This document shows positions 216 through 57,700 of a stretch of 64,000 nucleotides of DNA, one piece after another; within the stretch, counting starts at the first letter, position 1, and each line of letters begins with the position of its first letter. This stretch comes from Volvox africanus (Eukaryota > Chlorophyta > Chlorophyceae > Chlamydomonadales > Volvocaceae). The stretch lies in NCBI GenBank assembly GCA_030268105.1, contig BSDZ01000021.1, positions 1,364,001 through 1,428,000 of the forward strand, read 5' to 3'. Both the position numbers and the translations under genes were made by a program. The notes under the pieces are model-generated. The model was not told where the DNA came from. It saw only the letters and a list, made by a program, of their open reading frames with translations, and made no database searches.

Positions 216-16821
<16,606 letters not shown>

Positions 16822-21792: not shown

Positions 21793-22080
21793 TATGCATG
21801 TTGCGCGGTCGTGAGTTTTCCGTAGATCGTCCGTGCATAGACTGGTGAATGGGCTGCTCAGGCGCGGCGATCCCTGCATGGTCCGTCCATCCTTGCTCTA
21901 GCACAGCTCCGTTAGATGGTGCAGAGGGTCCATCACGGGCGTGGCGTGCCCGATTCCATGGTGTGGGTGTTGGCCCGGCAATGCGGCAGCGCTCATCAGC
22001 GAAAAGCGGAAAACGAAGCCAACCAAGGCTGCATGCGAAGGAGCAAGCCCCCCACCTAACAGTGTCTTTCCGGCCACGTG
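21793..22080. repeat. 288-base near-identical block, copy 1
   Basis: The block begins at TATGCATG and ends at GCCACGTG. The other copy, at 41254-41541, has the same length and only about two differences by eye, while flanking sequence in the same duplication is strongly diverged. It could be a short exon (an open frame starts at ATG 21849), a recent conversion tract, or a non-autonomous mobile insertion. No terminal inverted repeats were seen. Confidence 0.75.
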
Positions 22081-22512
22081 CAATCATGGGATAACGCTGG
22101 TGAAGCATCATCACTCCGGCTGCCATTGATGCGTGAAAGTAGTATTGGTGTAATGACCCAGAAGATAGCTCCTGTATACCGTAGGGAGGGGATCTCGTCT
22201 CTTTTGCCCTGTAGTTTTGCGCATGTCGTATCGTTGGTTAACGGCCAATCAGTGTTTGCACTCCATTGCCTTCCTTGTCTCTCCGCCTTCCTAAGCTCAC
22301 ATGTGTGTATATACATGTGTGTAGCAGACCTCTTACAAATATAGAACGAGCACCATTCCAAAGTTTGACTCATAGAACCGGTCATCATCATGATACACAT
22401 GGCCCCGTTTAACTCTCGCTCTGCATTGTTGCCAAACCCCGTCTTTAAACAGGTTGAGTCTAGACAGCGCGGCGACGACCTTGTGCGCAACGCACTGTAA
22501 CACGCCGCGGTG

Positions 22513-25500
22513 ATGCAGCAACAGCAGCCCGTCCTACCTCCCCTGTCGGCGCATCACACCCATGCGCCCGAGAGCCCTTCCGTCGATCAAGGTGCCCTGC
22601 CGGCCAGTGCGCGGCCCCCTGGCAACGTTCGGATGTCGTCGCCTGCCAATGGTTCGACACCGCTGGCACTTCATCCCATCGCGAACTGGGGTGCGGCTCG
22701 TAACCCAGATGCCACTCCGCAGACACCCCCCCAGGTGCAGCTGCCCAACTCATGGCTGGACTCGTCCGTGCATTCTTCGGCCTTCAGCGTAGTGCCATGT
22801 GGGGAATCTCGAGAGGTGCCGCCAATTGCGACGTCTGAGCGGACATGCCCTCGTACTTTACGTAACATTAGCGGCGGAGGCAGCTGCGGCAGTCTCGAAA
22901 GTGACGGCACTTGCGGATCTGGAGGCAGTCCCGGTGGCGTGACCACCGCTAGTGGAAACCCCCCGCTGGCTGCTTTAGACGAGGGACCGCGTCGCCTCAA
23001 GAACACCCCCCAGTCGGAGGAAGTGCCTCCACCGCCGCCACATCAGCCTCTCGAGGACCGCAGGGTATCGGCTGGAGGTGCATCCGCGGCCGCAGAGGAC
23101 ACCGTGATTCAGAATCATGGACAGAGCGATACTGAAGGCGCTGCGGGTGCTTTGGATGGCGGCGCCGATGCTGCCCCCTTGGCTACGAGCAACCAGCAAG
23201 ACGCCGTACAAAACCTGGATGAGATCGTGGCGGCGCTGCCCCCTGGGCCGATTCATGTGACAGTCGCCGTGCGCGTCGGTGCTGGCGGTGGCCGGCGGCC
23301 AAGAGGGGGCGGCGCTCGTGTAGCTGAGCGGGACACGCGTACCGGGTACATGCGGGGTCACGCATGCGGGGTCTTCGACGTGCCGCGTTACCTTTCTGGT
23401 CGGGACTGCATCCACAACGGCAACAAATGGATGTCCCGCTCAAACTTTGAAAAGGTAGGAGCTCCACGTCAGTGCGCTTCATCAGGAACTCGGGATGGCT
23501 TTCGGCCCTAACCGCCTGCGCGTGTGCTTCCGTTGATTTGCGATAATATCGAACGGATCTCCATTTCTTTTTGGGGCCGCAAAAATGCGATGTTATTTGC
23601 AATTAATTTCTATGATATATGCTTCATACAGATAAAACCTATATGCTCACACAAAAACTGCCGACGCGCAAAAACACCGGGAAAACTGAGGAGCTGCTGC
23701 GAAGGCTGTATGTGTGGCAAGCGCAGATTTCTAGGGCTGTGTGCGTTACCTGGAAAGATAAAATTTAAATAAAAATATTTCCATATTGAATCTTAACATA
23801 AAGCTTGGCCATTGGCATGTTGAGGCATTCGTCTCACCATCTCAAAAACACTACCTTGGCGCCCGCCTCTTGCTCACAAAAAATTTCTTATTTGTTAAAG
23901 TTTTTAATATCCTTAATTGTGTAATGATGGTTACCAACGACAAACATTCAAAATTGTCATGATTTTACCATTCTAAACCCTTTGACCATCTGAGTATTCG
24001 TTTTGTGATATGAATGTTTTTCTCTACAACCTTGTTAAAGTCCGCGAACTCCACGATTTGATATTTTGTATTATATTCTCCATTCATCTCGCGGTGCCTT
24101 GCTTGAATGAATTGAGGGTGAATTTGGATGCCCCTCTATAACAATAGTCCCCGGGCGTCCATCGCTGATCTTTTATAGAATGTGTATATTTTAAAGTAGG
24201 ATAATTGTTCTAACAATGAATGGATTAATTCATGAAATGCTGATGGAGGAAGAGTTAATATAACAGTATATAATCAAATACAAACCTGACTTAAATGGCA
24301 TCCAACCAAACTTGCAAAGTCTGGAGACGCATGCATGGGCCATGGGATAAGAGACTCTAAGATTAGTATGCTGATGGCTCATCTGAGTCTATTACAGCAC
24401 GATAGTTCATGTCTTGCTTGTGCCTTTCCTCTTTTGCACCATAGGACTACGAATACATGCTTTGCAAAGCAAGCACTGTTCCCATGCCTCATCTATCATT
24501 CTGTCCCGTTTCGTTCCCTTTCAGGTTGGCGGTAGTAAGATGGCTAAGTGGTACCGCTCTATCTTGGTGTTGCCTGATTTGGAGCCCCTGGGCGAGTGGC
24601 TGGAGCGCCACGGGATGCAAGTCACCAAGGGTCCCCCACGTCGCAGCCGTAAGCGGGCGGCCGAAAGTGGCGATGGCGACGAGCAGCTGGGAGACGGCCC
24701 CGACGACGATGGTGCAGCTGGAAGCCAGGAAGAGGAGCCCATGCAAGTAGATTCGGAGACAACATTGGCGATTGTCGCAAACAGCCCTGCCGCCACCACC
24801 GGGGGGCAGCTCCGAAATGGCAACCACCCAGCTGATGCACCAGCCTGGAGGTCCGACGGCCAGCAGCTGCAGCCTCAGCAGCTGCCGCTGCTCAACAACC
24901 CCCGTAATTCATCTATGCCGGCTGCGGCTGCGGCAGTAATGTCGGAGGGCAACGAGGAGCTGCCGATGCGAGCCGGCCATTGGCCGCAATCGCCAGAGGC
25001 GACAGTGGCGGCAGATTCTGCACCACAGCCACTGCCGCAACCATCGCACTTTCCACATCAGGATGTGCACCCGCAGCAGCAGTTGTGGACATCGCCGGCC
25101 CCACAGCAGCAGCAGCGACAGCCCTCACCACCGCCACTGCATCAGCCTCTCGAGGACCGCAGGGTTTCAGCTGGAGGTGCATCCGCGGCCGCAGAGGACA
25201 CCGTGATTCAGAATCATGGACAGAGCGATACTGAAGGCGCTGCGGGCGCTTCCGATGGCGGCGCCGCTGCTGCCCTCCCGGCTACGAGCAACCAGCAAGA
25301 CGCCGTACGAAACCTGGATGAGATCGTGGCGGCGCTGCCCCCTGGGCCGATTCATGTGACAGTCGCCGTGCGCGTCGGTGCTGGCGGCGGCCGGCGGCCA
25401 AGAGGGGCAGCCCGTGCGGCGGAGGAGGATACACGCTCTGGGTACATGCGGGGTCACGCACGCGGGGTCTTCGACGTGCCGCGTTACCTTTCTGGCCGGG

Positions 25501-28079
25501 ATTGCATCCACAACGGCAACAAATGGATGTCCCGCTCAAACTTTGAAAAGGTGGGAGCGCTTCTTCGGTAAAGTGGGATTCGGATGACTTTCAGCCCTAA
25601 TCGCCTGCGCGTGCGCTTCCGCCGACTTCCGATATATGCAGCATATTGCATTATCTCTATGTTTTCCGAAATATCACATTTTCCATGTGAGTCTATCGCT
25701 ACTTGCTTATGATCGATACTCATGCTGTTTGCTCACACTAAAACTTGGTACAAGCGAAGGCGAATTGGAAACCTCAAATTCCTTCAAAGATTTTAAAAAA
25801 GATAAATTAAATTTTATATTTTGTTCATATTATGTATACCAACTTTCATGTTCGTTAATTTGGCGCACGCAGCCGACCATTGCGCCCGCCGATCACTGCG
25901 ACGGACGCCAACAAAAATGTGCCCACTGCCGTTACTGTTTATTTATATTGTTAATTTCTGTTGCCTGATAATTAATGCATTTGATGTTAGAAATATGTTA
26001 CATTCGCTACTATGTTACCTTACTTCGGTTTCAATAATACTCTTTCAGTATCCCTGTCCTGTTATTAATTTGTCTCTGGCATATGCCACTAAGCCTATGA
26101 TTGCTGCACGAATTCCCTTTGCAAAGTAATCTTTATACATAAATAACATTTTTAAATATGACTTCTAGGTACTAGTTCTTGACCATTTCGCGAGCCTCTA
26201 CAGCCATACACCCTCCTGGCCGAGCACGTCCGAGCTTGTCAGAGCTTGTCCTTGTCCGAAATTGCTGAATGCGCCCGTTAAATTTCCTAAACAGGTGGGA
26301 GGAAGCAAGATGGCCAAATGGTACCGCTCTATCCGCGTGTTGCCCGATCTTGAGCCCCTGGGCGAGTGGCTGGAGCGCCACGGGGTACCCGTCGCTAAAG
26401 GCCCGGCACGTCGCAGCCGTAAGCGGGCGGCCGAAAGTGGCGATGGCGACGAGCAGCTGGGAGACGGCCCCGACGACGATGGTGCAGCTGGAAGCCAGGA
26501 AGAGGAGCCAATGCAAGTCGACACGGAAGCGAACGTGGCCGCAGTACCAAACCCGCCGGCGGCGCCAGCGCCCGCAGCAGCTCTAACTCCACTTGCCTCG
26601 CTGCCACCGTTGGCACCGCTGCCGCCACAAGCCGCAGCTGAAGCCGCAGCTGCGGCTGCAGCTGCAGCACGGTCAGCTGCAGCGAAGGCAGCTGGATCGG
26701 CATCTGTTGCCACGGGGCATGCGTCGCATCCCGGCGTGGATCGTCCCGTGGAAATCCCGTTGGACCGGAAATTCCTGCAGGCATTGCTGAACACGCTGTC
26801 TCAAGAGCAGCTTCTTTCCCGAAATGCTCTCGAGTCGGCAGTCAACGCCACTGAGGAGGAGCATGACCACGAGCTGTATGGACCACCTGGAGCCTACGTT
26901 GATTACTCCGCCTACGGTGGTATACGGAATCAAGGGACGATGCGTACCGGGGCCGGGGCCAGTGCGATCTCACGAGGCGCCGGGGCTCCAGGCACCGCCG
27001 AAGCGAAGTTACTGGCCGCGGCACAGGCTATGTTCGGGGCTGCGATGGCGGCAGCGCGACACCATCGTAGTGGAGACTTGCCGCCAGCAGAGCTCCCTAC
27101 GGACATGCCCCGGTTGCGCTGGCGTGCGCTGCACCGGTCCCAATCGTCCAGCGATCCAATGTCGTCGTCACCGACGCTGCACCTCGACCTACAGGATCTG
27201 CAAAATGCCCGGGATCTTGAGGACGGCCACGAGAACCCCAACCGTGGCAGTCGCCAGGCGCTTCGTCAGGAGCTTCAGCTCCAGCAGCAGCAACAACATC
27301 AGCTCCAGCAGCAGCTTCAGCAGCACTTGCAGCAGCAGCTACAGCAGCAGCTCGAGCAGCAGCTGGAACGGCAACTGGAGCAAGAGCAGCAACACCTACT
27401 ACGCCGCATCCGGGCGCAACAGCAGCAGCAGCTCCTGGCTGAAGAAGAGGACTATTATTACGGTGGTGATAACGATGCCCAGATGGAAGAGGACGAGGAA
27501 GACGTCATGAGTCGGATGGGCGGCATGGGAGACATGGAGCTAGACTTGGCACGGGCTCGTGCGGAGGCGGCGCCACAGATGTCACTTCCATTGCCGCAAC
27601 AGGTACGCCGGGCCCATGCTGGGGTACCGATGCCATACAACAGTACACGTCCTCAAAGGTACAGAACCTCCGAGTCTAGCGGAGGGGATATGGAGGGGCC
27701 TGAGGCTCCGTCGGCTGCCTACCTAACAGCGGCTCACGCCGTGGGTGCATCATCACGCGGCTCTTCCGGTCCCGGCACACAACCCCGTTTAGAGCGGCGT
27801 CTGCCGCTGCAGCCACTGCCGCTGCCCCCGGCACCGCCATCTCCATCTTCTCTGGAGAGCGCTGCGGCCTTGGCGCGCGGCCTGGCAGCTCTGCAGGGTT
27901 TGGACGTTGCTGCTGCCTCAGGACTCGGACCCGCGCATGAGCACTTGCCACAAGCGGCAATGCCGGCACCGCACCTGTATCCCCTGCGGGCTTCGGAGGA
28001 TGTATGCTTTAAGCCCCGCTGGAACGGACTTGGATTGTACTATTTCCTTATGGCCTCTGGGCGGGAAAACCGGTTTTAA
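22513..28079 (+). CDS. VARL locus A: RegA-like regulator with two complete VARL (SAND-type) domains
   Basis: Three exons: 22513-23454 (314 codons), 24525-25550 (342) and 26295-28079 (594 plus stop), all joined at phase 0, for about 1250 residues. Exon 1 is Pro/Gln/Gly-rich and ends in the first VARL half (GYMRGHACGVFDVPRYLSG ... NFEK). Exon 2 opens with the second VARL half (GGSKMAKWYRSILVLPD), runs through an acidic and Gln-rich linker, then ends with another first half (GYMRGHARGVFDVPRYLSG ... NFEK). Exon 3 opens with another second half (GGSKMAKWYRSIRVLPD) and continues into Ala-rich, acidic and Gln-rich sequence with QLQQQLQQHLQQQ-type runs. Known: VARL proteins such as RegA are nuclear DNA-binding regulators. 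The start was chosen as the first ATG after in-frame stops (one at 22498-22500). Locus C carries extra N-terminal residues, so the true start may be in an upstream exon. The C-terminus is shorter than in locus C and diverges after about 27950. Confidence 0.75.
23236..24650 (+). other. VARL domain 1 of locus A
   Basis: First half from PIHVTVAVRVGAG through GVFDVPRYLSGRDCIHNGNK to NFEK at 23454. The phase-0 intron is 23455-24524. Second half from VGGSKMAKWYRS through PDLEPLGEWLERHG to the basic RRSRKR. The WYRS and basic residues match the DNA-contacting helix region of SAND-type domains. Confidence 0.75.
25339..26420 (+). other. VARL domain 2 of locus A
   Basis: The same arrangement as domain 1: first half ends at NFEK (25550), intron 25551-26294, second half starts at 26295 with GGSKMAKWYRSIRVLPD and ends at RRSRKR. 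One notable change is HARGVF in place of HACGVF, so a Cys that domain 1, locus B (PACGIF) and locus C (HACGVF) all carry is Arg here. Confidence 0.75.
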
Positions 28080-36609: not shown

Positions 36610-37530
36610 CTTCCATCAACGGGTTGTGGACGCAGAATATCTATCGTACCGCAAGCTTCGGCCGCCACCACCAACACTACCTTGGCGATGTCCTGGACGA
36701 CCACAGTCGCTGTTAAGCCCAAGACCGGCACTGCTGCGCGGCGCCCCGGCCATCGGGTGGGGTTGGGGGTCATCAGCGAGGCCCATAATAGCTATGTGCG
36801 GGGCCCTGCATGCGGCATCTTTGACCTCACCCGGTACCTCACGGGCAGAGACTGCGTACGACACAGTGCTATATCCTACCTAAGCGTTGGAGTCTTTCCA
36901 CCATACATTCAATTCTTTTCGCAGTAAATATTGCAATATTGCAATATTGCAGCATCCGTAGGTAAAGGCGGGAAACGAAAAGCATCTACGAGCTGGCCCA
37001 TCCTTCTCACGGGCATGTGGCTGCCCCAAATTTAATGTTCTGTTTATGTTGCATCATCAGTGCTAAGTGGTACTAGCTACTCTTTTCGCGTGTTGCCTGA
37101 ATTGGAGCCGCTAGCTGGGCGAGTGGCTGTGGCCTAGGCTGGAGCACCTCATGTCCGTGCTTCAAGGTCCGCCACAACGCAGTCTGGAATGGGGGCCATA
37201 TGTGAGGGTGCCGCGGCGATAGAAATGAGGCAGCCTTGGGCGAATCGCATATTACTGCAACACGGCAACTGCTGGGCCACGGCATCGTAACCTAATGCTC
37301 AGCATCCTATCGTAATGGGTTGTAATGTCGTCATGACATCAAACTCAGTTATACTGTGGCAGAGAAGAGGCGGCAGCCGTCGCAGATGATGGTTGTCACA
37401 TGCTGCGCAGGTTACATGCTGTACTGTAGCACCGTTGCCACGCCGACTAGGGAGCTGATAGAAACCGAGGACAAGACGCCTACCATAACCCTGAGTGTCC
37501 AGGGTGTACCAGAGAACAAGAGGACTTAAT
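36610..37530 (+). pseudogene. Decayed partial copy of VARL locus B
   Basis: Bases 36630-36867 match locus B exon 1 closely (VPQASAATTNTTL ... TAARRPGHRVGLG ... GIFDLTRYLTGRDCVRH) but break off before the CGRWISRSQFEK end. From about 37065 the second VARL half is still recognisable (AKWY, FRVLPELEPL, a broken GEWLERH, VLQGPPQRS) with stops and indels. Further matches to locus B exon 2 continue to about 37530. There is no functional splice junction or frame. A short AATATTGC triplication lies at 36928-36951. Confidence 0.75.
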
Positions 37531-41253: not shown

Positions 41254-41541
41254 TATGCATGTTGCGCGGTCGTGAGTTTTCCGTAGATCGTCCGTGCATA
41301 GATTGGTGAATGGGCTGCTCAGGCGCGGCGATCCCTGCATGGTCCGTCCATCCTTGCTCTAGCACAGCTCCGTTAGATGGTGCAGAGGGTCCATCACGGG
41401 CGTGGCGTGCCCGATTCCATGGTGTGGGTGTTGGCCCGGCAATGCGGCAGCGCTCATCAGCGAAAAGCGGAAAACGAAGCCAACCAAGGCTGCATGCGAA
41501 GGAGCAAGCCCCCCACCTAACAGTGTCTTTCCTGCCACGTG
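41254..41541. repeat. 288-base near-identical block, copy 2
   Basis: Same limits (TATGCATG to GCCACGTG) and length as 21793-22080. The sequence before it (CACACACGCACAT) and after it (TATGTACAAG) does not match the other copy, so identity begins and ends abruptly. Confidence 0.75.
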
Positions 41542-42466: not shown

Positions 42467-45400
42467 ATGGACACCCACCCTGAACAGGCCGACTCCATCG
42501 AGGCCGGAAATGATATTGCTCCCGCACTGGAAGCTCCGGAACCACGAGAACCGTCGTCGCAACCTTCGCAACCGCAGCAACAGGTGCAGCAGCCGCAGCA
42601 TGCGATGGCGATGCAGCAACAGCAGCCCGTCCTACCTCCCCTGTCGGCGCATCACACCCATGCGCCCGAGAGCCCTTCCGTCGATCAAGGTGCCCTGCCG
42701 GCCAGTGCGCGGCCCCCTGGCAATATTCGGATGTCGTCGCCTGCCAATGGTTCGACACCGCTGGCACTTCGTCCTATCGCGAACTGGGGTGCGGCTCGCA
42801 ACCCAGATGCCACTCCGCAGACACCCCCCCAGGTGCAGCTGCCCAACTCATGGCTGGACTCGTCCGTGCATTCTTCGGCCTTCAGCGTAGTGCCATGTGG
42901 GGAATCTCGAGAGGTGCCTGTGTACCCACGTACTGGGCGTCATAACAACGGTAGATGTAGCGGCGATGGTATCAGTGGCAATGACGGTACTAACGATTGC
43001 GTAGGCAGGGGCGGTGGCGGGACCACCACAGGCGGCAATCAAGGACTGTGTCGCATTCTAAATCCTTCTCAGTCGGCGCTGGCGGCTGCATGTCCCATTC
43101 CGGAACAGACGCTGGAGAGCCCTACCGCTGCCGCCACCAGCCGTGGTGACGGGCTGCAAGGTGACGAGCTGCTGCCCACTGACGACGAAGCGGCCGTGCA
43201 GCCTCACGAATGTCAGCTGAAGCCTCAGCAGCGGCTTCCACCGCTGCCCAGAACTTCCTGCGTCGTATCTGCGCCTGAAGTGACAGCAGCACCGACGGCT
43301 GCACCGCAAGCGCAAGAAACGAATTCTCCAAACCAGTATTTACAGCAGGTGAGGTCATCGATACCGGCACCGTTGCAACTGCAGCAAAACCAGGTATCAC
43401 CGCGGCCGCAGCAACCGTCGCCGCCACCTCAGCAGCCATCACCGGCAGAGCCTCAGCAACACCGGCAGTCGGGGCCGCCATCTTCAGTGCAGGAGCAGGT
43501 CCCATCACCGTCGCAGCCGCAGCAGCGACCTTCAGACCGCACGATATCCGTTGATGGGGTATCGTTCGGTGCAGAGGACGCTGAGATGCAGCCGGCGAAG
43601 GATCCCGCTGGACAGAGCGGTGATGAAGGCGCCACCGGCAGTCTTGACGGGGGTGGCGCTGCAATCTCTAGCCCCGCTGCAGGCAAACAGCAAGACGCCG
43701 TACGAAACCTGGATGAGATCGTGGCGGCGCTGCCCCCTGGGCCGATTCATGTGACAGTCGCCGTGCGCGTCGGTGCTGGCGGCGGCCGGCGGCCAAGAGG
43801 GGGCGGCGCTCGTGTAGCTGAGGAGGACATGCGTTCGGGATACATGCGGGGTCACGCATGCGGGGTTTTCGACGTGCCGCGTTACCTTGCTGGCCGGGAC
43901 TGCATCCACAACGGCAACAGATGGATGTCCCGCTCGCATTTTGAAAAGGTGGGGTATGCAGCCAATGCGTCCGACAGCAGAGTGCAAATCAATAAGGAGG
44001 ATTTTGTTTCAAAATAACATTTCCTTCGCGGATCTTTTTGTTTTTCTTGTGAAGGTCAAAAGCACAACGGGATCGGACTATATGTATTGCATTGTTAGTT
44101 TCGTCTTGTCAACTGTCGTCGTCGCGTGCAGCTCATACAGCGTTACGTAATTTGCTCACACGAAAACCGAATCGATTACTCACGTACTACTGCGAAGGTT
44201 CTGCCGGAAGGACGGGATGCGTAGGTGAAAAATCATAAATGAAATAACGTATGATGATATAACAAGTCAGGTCATCATGACTTTGTGGATTGACATAATT
44301 TGTAGCAGCTAGCATGTATAGGGGAACGCCAGTCTCAACTAACGTTTTACCCCCCACGCACGGCCGCCGCCATCCACCATGTGCCACAAGTTACACCACA
44401 CGGTCTGGGCGAGGTCGTCCAGCATGCATCGATATTTTAAAGCAAATTCCTATATGTTTCCTTCCAGCATATACAATTTAAAACTCTCAAATTGTACAAC
44501 AATATATGCTTTACCTGTCGTCTGTTCAGGTTGAAATATTTCTTTATTATTTACGGTGCTACACCGTGGGCGACTTGCCCTGAAAGGATGAACGAGCACC
44601 GGGGGCTTGACCGGGCCGAACCATAGCGCAGGGGGGAACACACGGCTTTGTCTGTCTGTCTGTCTGTTCGTCCTTCCGTGCACTCCTCCTCTCGCTCAGC
44701 CAGCAAGCGCACACAGACCTCACGAGCCTCAAGCCTGGCTACTGGTGTTGTATCTCTGTTGTGTCGGCCAACAAAGGCCCGATCGGAAGGATGACCATTT
44801 AAGGTCCAGGATCGTTTGACACTGCCCGTAGATACCCCAGGATACTACAACTGGCTAAAGGAACAGAACCTCAGCCAACCACACCGGCACCCTGAAGGCA
44901 GGAGAGGACAAGCAAGAAGGCTCGCGATCAAGCCCTACCAACCAAAACTTAGGGAACACCTCCTCCTCCACCTACACTTCCACTCTATCCAAGCCCTGCA
45001 TCCCCGCCCCACCCAGCCAGGGACAGTCTATGGGAAGGGGTCACTAAACTTGGACCCTCCCAAACAGCCCAGCAGAAAAGCAAGACACCTCTAAAGACGC
45101 CGGGGGAATATCACACGCCCCCAAGGCGCGCGCCCCCCTGAAAAGCTCCACAGCTACTGTATTATCTAGTTGAGAGCCGCAAAAGCCTTTTGACATGCTG
45201 ATCTGATGCTTCTGCACCGTTATATCGTGGAAGTGTGTTACCGTATGTGTACGACTACTACACCCACACCCACTGAGACTCCTCCACATGCACCTGGCTG
45301 CAAGACACGCGCTGGAGAGTCCTCCCTCTCTTCTTCTTTATATTAATCATGCATATTGGCAAGGGATCATGGAATATTAAACATACACTTCCGTTTACTA

Positions 45401-48155
45401 GATCTATCCTTCCTGCCGTTCAAAGCTTCTTCTTCCTGCATGCATATCCTCATGCACGACCCACCACCGCATGTTAAGCAAGTTGCGTCTTAACTTCCAT
45501 AACGAATATTAATGTGTAGCATCAATGGTACTGATTGCCAGGACTAAGTTACAGTCCTGGGTGTTTACTGCCATCGGCGCCCGAGGACGTTTGCTTCAGG
45601 GCGGGGAGGATTGTAAGGGGGGAACTCACACCCTGGCATCATGTGGTATTACACCCTGTGTTATCGTACACTACATACTTGCGCGTTGATGAATGACCGC
45701 GCTGTTTATATGTCAGCAGGAGCGTTTAATGCCAGCTCTCTAGGCTAATGTATTCAAATTTAAAGAAGGATGCATGTTGTTTAGTAGTATGTAGAAAAGG
45801 AGATCAGCCATAGTAATAAGGCAACGCTGAAAGCCATAGAACTGTATAGAACGTATGGAAAAGACAATCAAGATCAAGATCGGAAAACAAACACTTTGCA
45901 AGAGAAACTCTGGAACAGAATTGTTAAGGACTCCAACTGTTATCAACGCAAGGAACCTCAGGCGCCGTACCGAAGGGCCCATGACGCGTTTCCAAACCCG
46001 AGTTTTGACACTCCATGAATCTTCCATCTCGCCTGTTTCGATTTCCCTTCGGCAGGTGGGCGGGAGCAAAATGGCCAAGTGGTACCGCTCCATCCGCGTA
46101 TTGCCTGACCTCGAGCCACTGGGAGAGTGGCTGGAACGCCATGCTATGCCAGTTACCAAGGGCCCGGCGCGCCGCAGCCGCAAGCGAGCGGCTGAAAGTG
46201 GCGACGAACAACAAACAGGGCAGGGCGCCGAACAGGAGGGCGCTTCTGGCAGCCCGGGGCCCGCCCCGGGTCTCGGAGGTGCACCCATGCTGATCGACCC
46301 AGTACCAGCGGCAGCCTCAGTCCCATCTTTCCCAGCAGTGCCGGCAGCCGCGGCGGCGTTACCACAGCTAACTTCAATGCCACAAGTAACCCAGCTGGCT
46401 CCCCTTCCACCACTGGCGCCGCTTCCGCAACAGGCAGCCGTCGCTGTGAACTCACGGTCAGCCGGACATACACCTGCAGTTGCGGCGATTGCACCACAGT
46501 CAGATGTGGAGCGACCGGTGGACGTGCCGCTGAATGTCCTAGCAGAACACCTGTTGCAGCAGCCCCGCCGCGGCGTGGACCGGAAATTCCTGCAGGCATT
46601 GCTGAACACGCTTCCACAGTCGCAGGAACAAGAGCTGCCTTCCCGAAACACTGTGGAGTCGGCTGCAGGCACTGCGAAAGAAGAGCATGACCACGAGCTG
46701 TATGGACCACCTGGAGCCTACGTTGATTACTCCGCCTACGGTGGTATACGGAACCAAGGGACGATGCGTACCGGGGCCGGGGCCAGTGCGGTCTCACGAG
46801 GCGCCGGGGCTCCAGGCACCGCCGAAGCGAAGTTACTGGCCGCGGCACAGGCTATGCTCGGGGCTGCGATGGCGGCAGCGCGACACCATCGTAGTGGAGA
46901 CTTGCCGCCAGGAGAGCTCCCTACGGACATGCCCCGGCTGCGCTGGCGTGCGCTGCACCGGTCTCAATCGTCCCGCGATCCAATGTCGTCGTCACCGACG
47001 CTGCACCTCGACCTACAGGATCTGCAAAATGCCCGGGATCTTGAGGACGGCCACGAGAACCCCAACCGTGGCAGTCGCCAGGCGCTTCGTCAGGAGCTTC
47101 AGCTCCAGCAGCAGCAACAACATCAGCTCCAGCAGCAGCTTCAGCAGCACTTGCAGCAGCAGCAAGAACTACAGCTGCTACGGCACATAATGGCACAGCA
47201 ACAGCTTGTGGTTGGCGAGGAGGACTACTACTATGCGGAAGAGGCTGAGAGACAAATCGAAGTGGAGGAGGGTGCGGGTCGCATGGGCGGCATGGGGTTA
47301 GAGGTGTCGAGGGGCCGCGCGGAGCCGCCGCCACCACCGGCGTCACTGCCGCCGCTCCTCCGTAGGACACTTTCGGGGGTGTCCATGCCACCAAACACAC
47401 GTATGCGACGGTTTGGATCCTCCGAGTCTGACGCAGTTGGCATGGCAGAGCCAGAAGTTCCCCCTGCGGCGTTTCTGGTCCCGAACCATGCCGTGGGTGC
47501 ATCATCACGCGGCTCTTCCGGTCCCGGCACACAACCCCGTTTAGAGCGGCCGCTGCCGCTGCAACCACTGTCGCTGCCCCCGGCACCGCCATCTCCATCT
47601 TCTCTGGAGAGCGCTGCGGCCTTGGCGCGCGGCCTGGCAGCTCTGCAGGGTTTGGACGTTGCTGCTGCCGCAGGACTCGGACCCACAGGACTCGGACATG
47701 AGCACTTGTCACGAACAGGACCGTCGGCGCCGCATGCGTATCCTGGTCGTGCGTACCCGGGGGCGCTGCGCAGTTATCGCCACGCAACGGAATCCGATCA
47801 GGCAGCGGGCTCTAAGCACAATCACAACCACAGCATCCCTAACCGCGACATGTACCAAGAAGAGAGCAGCCCGAGAGGAATGCTACTAGCACCCAGCGGT
47901 GAAGGCAGCCGAGGCGGATCAGCGAACGCTACTGCGGGTGCTCTGCTGATGCTTCAGCGGAGACAGAGCAGACAGCAGCGATGGATGGATGAAGCGGATG
48001 GGGAAGATGACGCAGCGATGGAGGAGGGGGATGCTGAAGAAGGTCAGGGATTGTGGCGCCAGATGGGCATCCGAGGTGAAGCATCACATGCGGCCGCTCA
48101 GGCCCGGTTCCTCGCGAGGCTCCAGGTTGAGCTGCAGTCTCACCCTTTACCGGAC

Positions 48156-48233
<78 letters not shown>

Positions 48234-48761
48234 AAGCAAAGACAAAGGCAGCCGCAGCAGCCGCAGCAGGGTCGTCTGCAAGCAAAGGGACAGCAGCCGT
48301 TTCCGCAACTAGATGTCCATGGACCCAGGGACGTGGAGGCTTACGCTGTACGCGAGCGTACAGCCCGGATGTGTGAACCGCCACCACCGCAGCGGCGGCG
48401 TCGAATGGGTGGCTACGCAGCTGAAGATCTGGAAGGAGTTGAGGGGGGAGAGGAAGCGGGAGAGGTGATGGAGTACTGGCTGGAGAACTTCAAAAGACGC
48501 CGTAGCGGGCATAGCATCGGAGACTTGCAGAGTGGAAATACGCCGTCGCTGCCGCTGCCACTGCCCCGAGCACAGCCACCGCCGCGGTCGTCGCAGACGT
48601 ATTACACACACCAACGAGCCACCGTGATGCCAGTGAGCCGAGATACAGCGGGGCAATGGCGGCCGCCCCGCCCATCGGCCGCGCCGTTCGAGCCACAAGG
48701 CCGCCGAGTGGACTGGCAGCTTCAGCGGACTCGGTCAGAAGAGGAGCCGCTTTCCGAGTAG
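42467..48761 (+). CDS. VARL locus C: RegA-like regulator with one VARL domain and long Gln-rich tail
   Basis: Exon 1, 42467-43948 (494 codons from ATG), and exon 2, 46056-48761 (901 codons plus stop), joined at phase 0 across a 2107-base intron, give about 1395 residues. Exon 1 starts MDTHPEQADSIEAGND, is Pro/Gln/Ser-rich and ends in GYMRGHACGVFDVPRYLAG ... SHFEK. Exon 2 opens GGSKMAKWYRSIRVLPD, EWLERHAMPVTKGP, RRSRKR. A long tail follows with stretches nearly identical to locus A (HDHELYGPPGAYVDYSAYGG; LHLDLQDLQNARDLEDGHEN), QLQQQLQQHLQQQ runs, a (CAGCAA)n-encoded poly-Gln at about 48158-48232 and acidic patches. Predicted role: nuclear DNA-binding regulator of the RegA family. The whole intron (43949-46055) shows only a short (TCTG)n at about 44649 and no gene. 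The frame is also open upstream of the ATG, so the start could be earlier. Confidence 0.75.
43729..46180 (+). other. VARL domain of locus C
   Basis: First half from PGPIHVTVAVRVGAG to SHFEK (43948), then the phase-0 intron. Second half begins at 46056 with VGGSKMAKWYRS and ends at the basic RRSRKR. Intron position is identical to that in loci A, B and D. Confidence 0.75.
48156..48234. repeat. (CAACAG)n coding repeat, poly-Gln
   Basis: About 13 hexamers (26 codons), all Gln, in locus C exon 2. Alternating CAA and CAG codons reduce slippage compared with pure CAG. Confidence 0.9.
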
Positions 48762-51900: not shown

Positions 51901-53519
51901 TATATTTGAAGTTTATCGTAATTTGACTAGGGAATCAACCGGCGGGCCTCATGACAGCAATGACCGCAAGACTGCGTTTACTCCCTTAATGGGATTTCAT
52001 GTAGTTTTAAAAGTAGATTCTACATATTTATAAACGCGTTAGATTATTAAACGCTTTGTCCTGTCTTGCAGCACGTACGTCAACGACCAACAGTCGCGGC
52101 AACATCATAGGGTCTGAACGCAGATCTGATCGTTAAGTAGTTAAAAAACGTACATAAAACCATAAGCCAGATAAATTCAACTAATCGCCCATTTTGTCAC
52201 GGTGTCGGTGCTGGGCCGGACAGCGCAGCTCCTGCAAAGTTTATGTACATTGCCTGGTTTATTATAAAACAAAGTTCGCGTTGTTGAAAACTAATACTTA
52301 ACCTCCCGGGCGATTGCCGGCGCCCGGCCTGTGGTCGGAATTGGTCGAGGGCCTGGAAAGCCGCTGCGGCTGCCCCAAAGCCACACCTAGGACTTGCCGT
52401 CATACAAGTATCAAAGGTGAGAATATTTATTTGCTCCTCAGAAACGGCGCGTCCTGCCGGATAACACGCTTGCTGAGAGCTGGCCAACGCGCTGGGTTAT
52501 CACGTATCATGCCGCAAATGCCTGCAAGTTGAAATCAATTACGTGCATATCACATAACAACGATGGTTCTGGCTTAATGCTGTGGTGCCCGTTTTTAAGC
52601 GGTGTCTTGTACACTTTGTAACGCGGCGCGGCGCTGCAACCCTGACCAAACGCCGCTGTCGGCGCCAACCAAACGCCGCCCATGAGGGGGCCCTATGCCG
52701 TACGGAGACCTCACAACAGACAACTTAAACCAAATACGCCCGCATGTTATCCCAGCACTAAGCCTGGTTTCCTGCCTATTCCGTGCTGTCGTGCATTGCT
52801 GGCAGTACGCAAATCACTATTTAACCGAAACCCTTCTTCCGACCGCAACCCGAACCACACGGTCAAAAACTGTTCTACCGGCGCGCCGTGAATGTCCGCA
52901 GTCTCACAGGTTTTGGGTGACTTGTCCATGAGGGAACGGATTGGCCACTTCCTCGTTCGCTGTTGAGGAGAGTGGCCAGGGTCCGCGCCTGCCATTCTCC
53001 ATCTGTTTTCATCGTTGCTGCCCCTGGTGCTGCTGGCAAGAGGCATGACCTGGCGCCCCTCATCCCCCCGCTGACGGAACAATTGATTGGCGCCGCCTCC
53101 GCATGGAGGTGAGGGCTGCGTGGGGAATGACTGATCTTGGGCCCTGCCCCACGTTGAGACCACGGCATGCCTCCGAATCCGTCACGCATGGCGTCATGAT
53201 GAGCAGCAGCATTCTTTCCTACCATATCGTGTTTCCAACCTCGCCTCTCCAGCTTCGTTTAGAGCCTGTCGCTTAAGAAGATGAGTCAGCAGGCAGGCTG
53301 AGCATCAGGATCAACTCCCCACATACCGATCTATATAGCCAAAAACAAGCGAATGCTCTCCCTTCTCCCAAAGCACTGGGTAACGGACAGTCGTATCACA
53401 CACACTTAGTTGTTAGGTGCGGCTGCAGTCCAGGCCGGGTAATATTACGCTGGAGGTGCAGTCCAAGCTCATACTGCTTGGCGATTGAGGGCTTTACCCG
53501 CTCGTCACAACCGACAGTT
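48942..53519. other. Region between VARL loci C and D
   Basis: No recognisable gene. A candidate internal exon lies at 49504-49694, between an AG and a GTAAGC site. A short ATG frame followed by GTGAGT lies at about 50314-50335 and could be a leader exon of locus D. 51.3-52.1 kb is AT-rich, with a small GCGACCG/CGGTCGC hairpin at about 51418-51436. Volvocine regA-type genes have long, intron-containing leaders, so part of this may be the locus D leader. Confidence 0.4.
49504..49694 (+). CDS. Candidate orphan internal exon
   Basis: The open frame between CGTTCAG and GTAAGC reads, in part, GPLRYCGHLTFWEIMRQQ, CVGRCGWWCADLRCIISA and FSMHVILQLLYNDAH. It is Cys- and Trp-rich but unlike the surrounding low-complexity frames. 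It could be a leader or coding exon of locus D or of an unseen gene, or chance. Confidence 0.22.
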
Positions 53520-56500
53520 ATGCTGGTGGTGGCCGCCTCACCCTGCTCCGCGCACTGCCACGACCTTTCGTCCACGCCCTACGTGGGCTCGTGCCTAACA
53601 CATACACCCCCCTGGACAGTGGCCATGCCGCACTGGTGCCTCCGCGTGTTTCCCGGGCCACTTCCATGCGCTCGCACACAGCCGAGGTGCCCTCTTGCCT
53701 CGCAGGCCGATCCCAACGGGGAGGGGGGCGGCGATGGCCAGCCCTCGGAGCCTTGGCAGCCTCCTCCGGCCCTCCTGCCTATTCCCGCCATCCCGGTCAG
53801 CCAGCTGCCCCGAGCAATCGCGGATCAGCTGCGTCAGCCCTCTGTGGGAATCAGCGCGGGCGTCGGCGCCGTCAGTGCAGGCGGTAGCGGCGGCATGAGG
53901 CCCCAGGGACGCACCGCTAGCGTATCGCCCCCGCCTCGTGGCCCGCAGCTTGCCCTCCGACCAATCTTGGGACGAGCTCTGGATGGATCACCGCACGGCT
54001 CGCAGCTGCAGGCCGTTGTGCACATACCCACCGCGGGCCACGTGGGCACGTTTGAAGTAGGCCGCGGCGAGGCGGCAGCGATGGCGGCAGCCGCGAGATT
54101 ATCGCCGCTGCCGCCGTCAGAACCGGGGCCACGACCAGCAGGGGATGCCGCCACTCATCCGTCACTCCTGGGGGGATCTAATGCCGCCGCCGCCGCCGCC
54201 GCAGCAGCAGCAGCAGCAGTAGCAGCAAGCCCTCCCACAGCGTCTCTTGATGATCGTCTGCTGAGGCCCATGCCACCCTTGCAGATAGCGCTCCGCAGTG
54301 TGAGGTCGCTTCAGGAGCGCTCAGACAGCCCTGGCAGCGATGTGAGGGGCGAGGGTCTCGCACCGTTGCAGGACCTCCAGCAGCCGCCACTTCCGATGCG
54401 GCCACCGCCGGCGCCCCTTCGCCGGCCGCTAATGACCGCGCCCTCAGCCTCACTTGTCGGTTCTAGCCACCAGCTGGCAAGTACTTCTGACTTCGGCCTG
54501 CGGCCACTGCCCCGGGCCGTCTTAGCTTCAGCGTCTATGATCCCGCCCCCGCTGCCCTCGGCGCTGCCTCAGGCCCTTCATCTTGTTCCTTCTCTCACAC
54601 AACCACAGTCACTGCATGACCAGCCGCATTTGCTCCCATTAGCCGATCTAGGGTTTGAATCCGTGGCAGCCGGGCTGCTGGTCGATGCCGGCCAGCACGG
54701 CGGCGATGCTAGCATGATGGGGCTAGAAGGCGACGGCGGAGGTGACGGTATTGGAGGTTTGACGGAGGCCGGTCTTACGACGGCGATCCCCGAGCCGATC
54801 GAAGTCACAGTCGCAGTTCGCATGACCTCCACCAGCGGGAGACGGGGCCGGGAGGACTTCACCCGGGGAAACTACACGAAGGGCCAGCATGTCGGCAAGT
54901 TCGACGTGCCCCGCTACCTGGCCGGCCGAGACTGTATACATTATAATGGTCGCTGGATGTCTCGGTCGCACTTTGAAAAGGTAAGTGACGAGATGAGGTC
55001 ACGTCGTGCGGCCGACAGTTCGCACCACCGTGCGTCCGAAACCACGCTAGTTGAGCTGTTGAGCTCCTAAGGATAGTAAATCACTTTCAAGCTGCCCTTC
55101 TGTCCTTAGATTTCTATACCTTAAAAGTTATGTCTCGTTCGTCCATGCCCTAGCTGGGCACCTTCACAGGTCGTCCTTGCCCAAGCCCCGCACGCCTGCC
55201 CCGATTCACCCAGTCTATTCCTCCCTCCTCTCCTCACACCCGGCAGGTGGGAGGAAGCAAGATGGCGAAATGGTACCGCTCCATCCGCGTGTTGCCTGAT
55301 TTGGAGCCGCTGGGCGAATGGCTGGAGCGCCACGGCATGCCGGTCACCAAGGGCCCGTCGCGCCGCAGCAGCCGGCGACCGGCGGCACTCGACAGCGGCG
55401 ATGAGCAGTTGGGACTTGTGAGCCTAGGGACCGCCACAGGCCCCGAACTTCCCGAGCTTCCCGATCTATCGGTCGTGGACACCTCCCCTCCTCCCCCGGC
55501 ACCAACCCTGGCGGTCGCGCCTGTCCGGCACCTGGATATGAACAGTCCCGTGCCGGATCCCTTGCTAGACACCATCGGCGACAGCGCAACAGTTAGCGGT
55601 GGCGGGCGCGCCGAAAAGGGGAGTACCGGCAGTGGTGGCGGCAGAAACAGCTCCGATAGGGCCTTTCTCCAGCGGTTGATGAATACCCTGCCGCGTGCTT
55701 CCCAGAGGTTCCTGCTGACGCCGCCTCCAGGGCGCGAGCCACCGGCCGTCGCTCGTGGAACTAGCTCGCCAACCTGGGGCGGCAATAGGGGCGCGGTGTC
55801 AGCTGCGTTGACGCCGCCGCCAATGCCCCCCCTAGATTCTGACCTGCTGGCCGCTCTTCCGCGCACTGGCAGCAGCAGCGCTGAGGCTCTTTTACCTGAT
55901 CGCATGGAAAGGGTTCCGGTCCGTCGTCGCGCAATGCAGCCATCGGAGCTGCACCACGTAGGCGGCGAAGCTGGGACACCGCCTTCGGCTAAGCTGCCCG
56001 TCAACCCGTCGCAGCAGTTCCCGCTACAGCGGTACCCGCAACTGCCGCCGCCGTTGCCGCAGTCTCTTCACAGCGCTGACGCGACGCAGGCTTTCTCTGG
56101 GCGGGATCTTCGAGGGATCGGAGACACGGTACCGCAATCTCTTAGGCGGTCACTCGCCGGAATGGGCAGCGGTTACGCCGCTGAGCATTCTGATGAAGGC
56201 TATGAGGAAGTGGATGGCGAGTCTCTGGGGCCCTTCGACCATGGCGTGCAAGATACTGGCCAGCGGCAACGATTCTGGGGGGAGCCACAGCCACCGCCAC
56301 CGCAGCCACCGCGACTGTCTCATATGCGCACCAACAATACATCGTCCCAACAGACGCAGCGAATCCGTCGGCTCCATGCCGGCGCCGCAGGGCTGGGTGA
56401 GGTTCCGGAGCGCTATCGGCCAATGCCGTATTCCAGTGTGGAACAGCGCCAACAGCTCCACGAGGATCCTGACCCAGACATCTCAGACTTGCCCCCTCAG

Positions 56501-57700
56501 GCACACGTGTCACCCACACGGCGGCAACTTGTCGGCAGTCTGTCTTCCCTTCAGGGCAGGGTCTCGGCGGGGGGGCTCTCGACAGCTCATGATTTACTTT
56601 TGCGGGCAATGGCAGCAGAGGTAACGACGACGACGCCCTCGCCGCCCCCGCCCCCGCCGCCAACCGTGCCATCGCAGCGCTACATTGCCACCCCATCCGC
56701 CGGAGCACGGTACTTTCGCGGCCAGTACGACAGCCAGCAGAGCTTTTCCGGTGAAGCTCCCGGCCGGGGCTTTCATGATGGCGGTTCACCTGGAGTTCCT
56801 GCATCCCCACCACAACCGGCACGTCCACCGCCACCGCAGCAGCAACCCCAGCAGCCCCAGCAGCCGTCCGAGCAGCAGCAGCAGTCCCAGAAGCAGCAGC
56901 AGCAGCAGCCCCAGCAGCAGCAGCAGCCCCAGCAGCAGCAGCAGCCCCAGCAGCAGCAGCCCCAGCCGTCCCAGCAGCAGCAGCAGCAGCAGCAGTCCCA
57001 GCAGCAGCAGTCCCAGCAGCAGCAGCCCCAGCCCCAGCCGTCCCAGCAGCAGCAGCAGGGCCCGAGCCGGCCCCAACCTTACATCCCCCGCCATCCCCAT
57101 TGGCGCAAGCGGGCGTTTGCAGCCTATGCGGAGGGAGCCTCCCTGGAAGCGCATCACGCCGAGGAGCAGTCACCGCTACCCCCACATCTCCCTGCTCCAC
57201 ATGAGGCGGCGCCCCAGCAGCAGCAGCCCCAGCAGCAGCAGCCCCAGCAGCAGCAGCAGGCCCGGCAACAACAACATCCCTCACATCAACACTCATCGCA
57301 GCATCCGTCCATGGGGACATCGGTGGCTCTGGATCTACGGGAGCCAGGGGGGGAGTTCGATCTGCATGCAGCACAGCGGCGGCTGATCCGGCGCCGGGGC
57401 TCGCAGCAGCAGTCGGAGCATTTCCCGCAACATCAGCAGCGGAACCAGCAGCAGCAGGGATTTGTGGAGCAGGCAGAGCGGGAAGGGCACGAGGAGGAAG
57501 ACGACGACGAGGAGGAGGACGAGGACGAGGAGGGCGAGGACGAGGAGGCTCATGCGGCGGGACTGGCGCAAAATCCGCCGAACGGTGCCGTGCCCAGCCG
57601 CCGCCGACGACGACGACGCCGACGACGGAGCCGGCTGGGTCTGCTAGCGCCATCCCCGCTTCAAGGAGCCGAACCCAGTTCTGGTGATCATCATGAGTGA
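53520..57700 (+). CDS. VARL locus D: RegA-like regulator with one VARL domain, poly-Gln and acidic/basic tail
   Basis: Exon 1 ends at 54980 (487 codons if the ATG at 53520 is used). Exon 2, 55247-57700, adds 817 codons plus stop. They join at phase 0 across a 266-base intron for about 1300 residues. A CCTCGCAG acceptor at about 53705 suggests exon 1 may instead begin there (DPNGEGGGDGQPSEPW) with upstream exons unseen. Exon 1 is Pro/Ala/Leu-rich and ends EVTVAVRMTSTSGRRGRED, HVGKFDVPRYLAGRDCIHYN, SRSHFEK. Exon 2 opens GGSKMAKWYRSIRVLPD, EWLERHGMPVTKGP, then RRSSRRP. A long Pro/Gln-rich tail with interrupted CAG-encoded Gln (56836-57056) follows, then an acidic run (about 57490-57550) and an Arg-rich run (about 57597-57635) that could be a nuclear localisation signal. 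The stop at 57698-57700 may be bypassed by splicing to 59420-59662. Confidence 0.72.
54793..55375 (+). other. VARL domain of locus D
   Basis: First half: PIEVTVAVRM, YTKGQHVGKFDVPRYLAG, CIHYNGRWMSRSHFEK (to 54980). Second half from 55247: VGGSKMAKWYRSIRVLP, DLEPLGEWLERHGM, ending RRSSRRP rather than RRSRKR. Lys replaces the Cys-Gly or Cys pair before the Phe-Asp motif that loci A and C carry. Confidence 0.75.
56836..57060. repeat. Interrupted CAG/CCC-CAG coding repeat
   Basis: Runs of CAG broken by CCC and TCC codons in locus D exon 2, giving Gln blocks separated by Pro and Ser. The opposite-strand poly-Ala/Gly frames across this part are shadows. Confidence 0.9.

What the first reader, a model, noticed from the sequence alone, without database searches (positions are those of the whole stretch)
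22513..28079. One gene with two complete VARL domains, made by in-frame fusion of two RegA-like genes
Exon 2 of locus A (24525-25550) opens with a second VARL half and an acidic linker nearly identical to that of exon 3, and ends with a leader and first VARL half nearly identical to exon 1 (from PLEDRRVSAGG on). The expected stop, intergenic DNA and start are gone and the frame is open throughout. The simplest reading is deletion between exon 2 of one VARL gene and exon 1 of its tandem neighbour. VARL proteins I know of carry one such domain, so a tandem-domain RegA-like factor could bind paired sites or act as an intramolecular dimer.
Basis: partly seen in the sequence, partly recalled or inferred. 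Interest (0 to 1): 0.88.

Follow-up and report, generated by a model that had tools for sequence, protein, structure and literature searches.

The report
Volvox RegA-like gene with two DNA-binding domains
A predicted gene beside regA in the alga Volvox africanus carries two complete copies of the likely DNA-binding domain of RegA, the body-cell regulator, where the matching protein on record from another assembly of the species has one; it likely arose by in-frame joining of two RegA-like copies, and one two-domain gene of this family was already known from another Volvox.

Summary
Locus A (exons 22513-23454, 24525-25550, 26295-28079) is open for 1250 codons and encodes two full-length VARL domains (183 and 186 bits; 37 of 37 other proteins tested have one). 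The fusion idea passes a new test: exon 2 carries a piece of regA-type leader that exon 1 lacks. Both domains are regA-type. The join looks old: the VARL second halves differ with dS 0.61 while their neighbours are almost identical, a gene-conversion mosaic. The matching protein of the other V. africanus assembly (P0001) has one VARL, with exon-1-type leader and exon-2/3-type VARL, as if one unit had popped out. Exon 2 is phase 0-0, so skipping it would give a one-VARL protein. The novelty claim needs correction: rlsN of V. ferrisii is a published two-VARL gene (PMC10137558). Ours lies upstream of rlsA, not between rlsB and rlsC, and is regA-type, so it is likely a second origin. No transcript data were available; function is inferred.

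The parts
22513..23454 (+). Exon 1 of locus A: leader and first half of VARL domain a
   Evidence: Open, ends ..NFEK|GTAGGA; P0001 aligns over its whole length, 89% identical
22663..22677 (+). LALRP-like motif (LALHP)
   Evidence: Translation; the motif is described in PMC10137558
23041..23247 (+). Leader repeat copy 1 (HQPLEDRR..LPPG)
   Evidence: dS 0.08 to copy 2
23257..23454 (+). VARL domain a, first half
   Evidence: HMM residues 249-314
23455..24524 (+). Intron 1 (1070 bp), GC 0.40
   Evidence: GT..AG; no clear alignment to intron 2 beyond about 95 nt; 23560-24500 single copy in the genome
24525..25550 (+). Exon 2, phase 0-0: second half of VARL a, linker, leader tail, leader repeat 2, first half of VARL b
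   Evidence: Open in one frame; that frame scores best of six in each of its five segments, though VARL halves score only about zero
24525..24644 (+). VARL domain a, second half; carries the R-to-L change at profile position 80
   Evidence: HMM residues 315-354; R in 35 of 37 other domains
24645..24794 (+). Acidic linker, copy 1
   Evidence: 0 amino-acid changes in the 31 codons compared with exon 3 (24660-24752)
24795..25139 (+). Seam and regA-type leader tail; the alignment to P0002 (regA) starts near 24864
   Evidence: Score 127 against V. obversus RegA leader, 0 of 1000 shuffles reach it; 107 against P0002 leader, 1 of 1000
25140..25346 (+). Leader repeat copy 2
25356..25550 (+). VARL domain b, first half
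   Evidence: HMM residues 592-656
25551..26294 (+). Intron 2 (744 bp)
   Evidence: GT..AG; no TGTAA inside; 25640-26270 single copy in the genome
26295..28079 (+). Exon 3: second half of VARL b, linker copy 2, FLQ motif, Q-rich stretch, stop
   Evidence: P0001 90% identical over 608 aligned columns
26295..26414 (+). VARL domain b, second half
   Evidence: HMM residues 657-696
26772..26780 (+). FLQ motif (DRKFLQALLNTL)
   Evidence: Translation; motif described in PMC10137558
31301..34003 (+). Locus C = rlsA (VaNZ11_008321)
   Evidence: 99.8-100% identical to P0025, whose letters run across the intron at FEK|
36636..37129 (+). Locus D: rlsA fragment, broken
   Evidence: 36636-36860 is 92% identical to 32418-32655; no frame is open throughout
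42488..48761 (+). Locus B = regA (single VARL), exons 42488-43948 and 46056-48761
   Evidence: Best match P0002; second exon aligns with V. obversus RegA to its C-terminus
53277..57700 (+). Locus E = rlsB (single VARL)
   Evidence: Best match V. carteri RlsB

Best explanation
Locus A is a predicted regA-derived gene of Volvox africanus whose open frame encodes two complete VARL (SAND-like) domains, and it likely arose when two regA-type copies were joined in frame, from the tail of one copy's acidic linker into the leader of the next. Shown: the frame, two full-length domains, a leader-type seam, regA affinity of both domains, and one VARL in the matching protein record (P0001) of another V. 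africanus assembly. Likely: the two units were already separate before the two strains split, and the one-VARL form arose by recombination between the leader repeats. Inferred: the protein acts as a RegA-like transcription factor, probably a repressor. VARL b would be the main DNA-binding domain. VARL a, which has lost a near-invariant arginine, would add a weaker or altered contact, so that one chain covers two half-sites that single-SAND factors reach by pairing. Skipping the phase 0-0 exon 2 would give a one-VARL product.
For: Two domains of 183 and 186 bits, full profile length. Leader tail in exon 2 matches regA leaders of V. obversus and P0002, not exon 1's leader and not the three C-terminal stretches tried. 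Both domains fall in one clade with V. obversus RegA and V. africanus regA (92/93), and VARL b pairs with P0001, leaving VARL a outside (97/93). Few amino-acid changes for the silent ones: dN/dS 0.14-0.15 in both VARL halves. Of 49 well-conserved columns VARL a breaks 1 and VARL b 0. The VARL intron at FEK| is borne out by the annotated rlsA and rlsD proteins of this genome and by P0001. P0001 is exon-1-type upstream of the leader repeat and mostly exon-2-type after it (8 sites against 2). No TGTAA lies in exon 2 or intron 2. PacBio at about 197x plus Illumina polishing (PMC10291315, methods section). SAND link: Pfam SAND hits below cut-off and GMEB1 SAND as the sole structural row. DEAF1 reads paired half-sites (PMC4274154, passages).
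Against: No transcript or read data were available. No annotated protein of this assembly with two VARLs turned up in three protein searches, nor its regA protein. The leader-tail match to this genome's own regA is not above shuffles (206 of 1000 reach it), it is not above them for most of the 15 targets tried, and P. caudata RegA passes only one of the two shuffle kinds (8 and 93 of 500). The seam stretch alone is open in 135 of 2000 shuffles. Two of ten informative sites in P0001 are exon-1-type within the repeat. VARL a joins the VARL b pair with support 88/0 only, and the tree program warned of long branches; in a 15-row tree no branch is starred and keeping VARL a and b as sisters is rejected only narrowly (p 0.042). 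A TGTAA lies in intron 1 (23920), so an early-ended transcript is possible.
Confidence: 0.66

Rival explanations
1. Two-VARL is the derived state: the common ancestor had one VARL as in P0001, and the Thai lineage gained a second unit by insertion or conversion from another regA-type copy, since lost.
For: P0001 has one VARL and lacks the leader tail. A and regA visibly exchange sequence.
Against: VARL a falls outside VARL b plus P0001 (p 0.042). The two VARL second halves differ with dS 0.61 and the introns align only near the donor. It needs an unseen donor for intron 1, the leader tail and VARL2a; DNA searches of this genome with the seam and intron 1 found only themselves.
Confidence: 0.25
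2. Locus A is transcribed as two separate genes or mainly as an exon-1/exon-3 product, with exon 2 skipped or dead; a two-VARL protein is rarely or never made.
For: Exon 1 to exon 3 is phase 0 and would give a one-VARL protein like P0001. No annotated two-VARL protein was found. VARL a has the R-to-L change.
Against: Exon 2 is open over 342 codons, with positive coding scores through linker, seam and leader. Few amino-acid changes despite many silent ones. No TGTAA in exon 2.
Confidence: 0.22
3. Assembly artefact: two tandem genes collapsed at the seam.
For: Repeats 2.1 kb apart, 95% identical over 280 bases.
Against: The paired repeats differ at about 5-11% of bases over most of their length, and introns and seam are single-copy by DNA search. 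Long-read assembly at about 197x with Illumina correction. The seam is in frame and has regA-leader homology.
Confidence: 0.05
4. It is the orthologue of V. ferrisii rlsN, moved within the cluster.
For: Both have two VARL domains.
Against: rlsN lies where rlsO does, after rlsB and before rlsC; here no VARL unit was found between rlsB and rlsC, and A lies upstream of rlsA. A's domains are regA-type and away from P. morum RlsO. The rlsN sequence was not found, so this is not excluded.
Confidence: 0.08

Closest known systems
rlsN of Volvox ferrisii (Hanschen et al. 2014, as described in PMC10137558)
   Same: A regA-cluster gene with two VARL domains, thought to come from domain duplication
   Different: At the rlsO position and thought to derive from rlsO; here regA-type, upstream of rlsA, and the matching protein of a second assembly has one VARL
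regA of V. africanus (locus B) and V. obversus (P0003)
   Same: LALRP-like and FLQ motifs and VARL; locus B also the intron position and long shared tracts
   Different: One VARL; long C-terminus that locus A lacks (A ends in its own short tail, the same in P0001)
Vafri_2333 (P0001), orthologue of locus A in another V. africanus assembly
   Same: 89-90% identical over exons 1 and 3, same start and same C-terminal tail
   Different: One VARL; lacks one VARL unit and the leader tail
SAND-domain factors DEAF1 and GMEB1
   Same: VARL is SAND-like; these factors bind two half-sites
   Different: Their chains are described with a SAND domain that reads half-sites, with oligomerisation as the proposed way to reach two (PMC4274154); that each has a single SAND domain is recalled

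Membership tests
VARL gene family | Presence of the VARL domain | tested here: met
   Two full-length HMM matches
VARL gene family | Conserved intron inside the VARL domain | tested here: met
   FEK|VGG in both copies, GT..AG; same site borne out by annotated rlsA and rlsD proteins
regA-type genes (regA, rlsB, rlsO) | LALRP motif upstream and FLQ motif downstream of VARL | tested here: met
   LALHP (one change) in exon 1 and FLQ in exon 3; neither is in exon 2
regA orthologues | Groups with RegA of close species | tested here: met
   Clade with V. obversus RegA and V. africanus regA, 92/93; not resolved in a 15-row tree
regA orthologues | RegA-type C-terminus and cluster place between rlsA and rlsB | tested here: not met
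   A ends early and lies before rlsA; locus B fills the regA place
rlsN | Two VARL domains | tested here: met
rlsN | Position between rlsB and rlsC | tested here: not met
   No VARL unit found there; A is upstream of rlsA
rlsN | Sequence orthology to V. ferrisii RlsN | not testable with these tools
   RlsA, RlsB and RlsC of V. ferrisii were found, RlsN was not
SAND domain (PF01342) | Curated profile match | tested here: inconclusive
   P0001 19.2 bits, E 0.001, cut-off 22; 7 of 7 natural VARL proteins tested hit SAND below cut-off; the exons of A, scanned apart, gave none
SAND domain (PF01342) | SAND fold | tested here: inconclusive
SAND domain (PF01342) | DNA binding | not tested
   Needs a bench assay

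The most novel reading that the evidence does not exclude
Two-VARL regulators arose at least twice in Volvox: rlsN in V. ferrisii and, from regA itself, locus A in V. africanus. In V. africanus the number of DNA-binding domains is a live polymorphism, two in the Thai strain and one in the strain behind P0001 through pop-out between leader repeats, and within the Thai strain exon 2 works as a phase 0-0 cassette that switches the protein between one and two SAND domains.
Probability: 0.3. Interest if true: 0.7.

Novelty: new variant of a known kind. Interest (0 to 1): 0.52.

Why it matters
regA is the textbook switch for the origin of body cells. A regA-derived neighbour with a doubled DNA-binding domain, different between two assemblies of one species and exchanging sequence with regA, gives a natural test of what domain number does to such a regulator. 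It also suggests a general route: the VARL intron is in phase 0, so in-frame exchange between tandem copies can readily make a second domain. PMC10137558 (passage) says that V. africanus still needed analysis of its VARL genes; the cluster order given here starts on that.

Tried and rejected
Simple recent internal duplication: rejected because the introns align only over about 55 bases near the donor, with nothing clear beyond, and VARL2a/2b differ with dS 0.61. Exon-2 seam as left-over C-terminal coding of the first unit: scores against three C-terminal stretches do not exceed shuffles. Seam as copied from exon 1: score 38, below the shuffle mean. Conversion of VARL2a from regA: dS 1.66 to locus B. 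Two genes by a hidden poly(A) site in exon 2: no TGTAA there (PMC10137558 gives UGUAA for regA). A sequence search of solved structures with a VARL profile gave one irrelevant match at E 0.88. Foldseek gave no significant match and the mean pLDDT is 48. One of two intron comparisons gave no output, probably a parameter fault; it was run again. The protein searches are not complete: V. carteri RegA did not appear in them, and only the candidates sharing most words were scored. Rows dropped: one search used 34 of the 39 domain rows (five partial or remote ones, P0030, P0031, P0033, P0034 and P0035, left out), one search used 15 of 39, and the alignment for the model took 26 of the 35 returned proteins. 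Two papers looked up by PubMed Central id are not held.

Full report
What and where. PMC10291315 (passages and method section) describes the Thai strain 1101-NZ-11 (NIES-4468), sequenced with PacBio at about 197x, assembled with Canu and polished with Illumina. The proteins named Vafri come from another V. africanus assembly; I take it to be the Japanese strain that the same paper names, which no call confirms.

The cluster. By best matches to named proteins the order is: A (this finding), rlsA (C), a broken rlsA fragment (D), regA (B), rlsB (E), then outside the window rlsC (F, VaNZ11_008326) and rlsD (G, VaNZ11_008329). All lie on the + strand. Of 11 matches to the VARL first half in this genome (E up to 0.01, counts being lower bounds), two lie in A and nine at nine other places: B, C, E, F, G, the fragment D and three weak matches on other contigs.

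The observation. A VARL profile built from 19 sequences without A finds two full-length domains in A, 183.2 and 186.0 bits, and one in each of the other 37 proteins (35 returned proteins plus loci B and E; 19 of these were in the seed, and some matches, such as P0034 and P0035, are partial). Of 49 columns held by at least 85% of the other 37 domains, VARL b keeps 49 and VARL a 48; the exception is R to L at profile position 80, R in 35 of 37.

The seam. The homology to exon 3 ends near 24794. The next 115 residues (24795-25139) match the leader of V. obversus RegA (score 127; best of 1000 shuffles 101) and of P0002, the other assembly's regA (107; 1 of 1000 reaches it). The match to locus B's own leader is weak (76; 206 of 1000 reach it), to exon 1's leader absent (38, below the shuffle mean), and none of three C-terminal stretches exceeds shuffles (15 targets). 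So the second unit brings its own regA-type leader piece, which is what a join of two regA-type copies predicts. A deletion between neighbours and an unequal exchange cannot be told apart.

A mosaic of ages. Between the two units dS is 0.08 in the leader repeat, 0.27 in the VARL first half, 0.61 in the VARL second half and 0.18 in the linker; dN is 0.04, 0.04, 0.085 and 0. Introns 1 and 2 align only over about 55 bases near the donor. This suggests old units with recent gene conversion. The same goes on between A and regA, 20 kb apart. In four stretches chosen by eye, paralogues within an assembly are 97-99% identical in two (leader; the stretch after FLQ) where orthologues are 86-89%. In the other two the order is reversed: orthologues 100% and 97% for A, 93% and 80% for B, against paralogues 72-76% and 47-64% (the last on 25 residues for P0002, which is partial).

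The other strain. P0001 (Vafri_2333, 922 aa, contig 5,828,971) matches exon 1 at 89% and exon 3 at 90% and has one VARL. P0002 (regA) and P0024 (rlsA) bear the same locus tag and contig length. At sites that distinguish exon 1 from exon 2, P0001 is exon-1-type just upstream of the leader repeat and, from there to the end of the half, exon-2-type at 8 sites and exon-1-type at 2, with one site like neither. Its second VARL half is identical to exon 3's and not to exon 2's. A tree of 34 domains joins VARL b with P0001 (97/93) and leaves VARL a outside, all inside a clade with V. africanus regA and V. obversus RegA (92/93, with a warning of long branches elsewhere). In a 15-row tree the pair is 91/95, the wider regA clade is not resolved, and holding VARL a and b together is rejected only narrowly (p 0.042). 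The likely reading is a two-unit ancestor and a pop-out in the other strain.

Known or new. rlsN of V. ferrisii is described as unique among VARL genes in having two VARL domains (PMC10137558, section 6), so the kind is known. Searches of the held library for VARL with regA and volvocine (9 papers), rlsN (1 paper), V. africanus with regA (21 papers, 15 listed) and 'two VARL' with VARL or SAND terms (11 papers) showed no report of this locus in the titles and abstract openings listed; I read PMC10137558, PMC10291315 and PMC4274154 only in the parts named.

Noticed in passing
22509-22820 / 42607-42918; 26761-27339 / 46576-47163; 27735-27932 / 47487-47684: Locus A and regA (locus B), 20 kb apart, share tracts of 94-98% identity while their VARL second halves differ with dS about 1.6. 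The first two tracts are also alike between the two paralogues of the other assembly, in that assembly's own version: a sign of continuing gene conversion.
   Followed up: yes
36636-37129: A broken rlsA fragment (VARL first half and part of the second, with stops) lies between intact rlsA and regA; its best part is 92% identical to rlsA.
   Followed up: partly
21793-22080 / 41254-41541: A 288-bp block upstream of locus A is 99% identical to one upstream of regA; it may be a shared promoter region or part of a larger duplication.
   Followed up: no
G000:C21:1459560-1464075: VaNZ11_008329 is named RegA in UniRef but its nearest named relatives include RlsD and RLS1; the gene that matches V. obversus RegA is locus B, for which no VaNZ11 protein turned up.
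   Followed up: partly
24525-24644: VARL a has L where 35 of 37 other VARL domains have R (WYRSIR to WYRSIL).
   Followed up: partly
10374-10536, 12733-13144, 15113-15264: Hexanucleotide microsatellite arrays (TGTGTA/GTGTAT and TGGTGA) upstream of the cluster.
   Followed up: no
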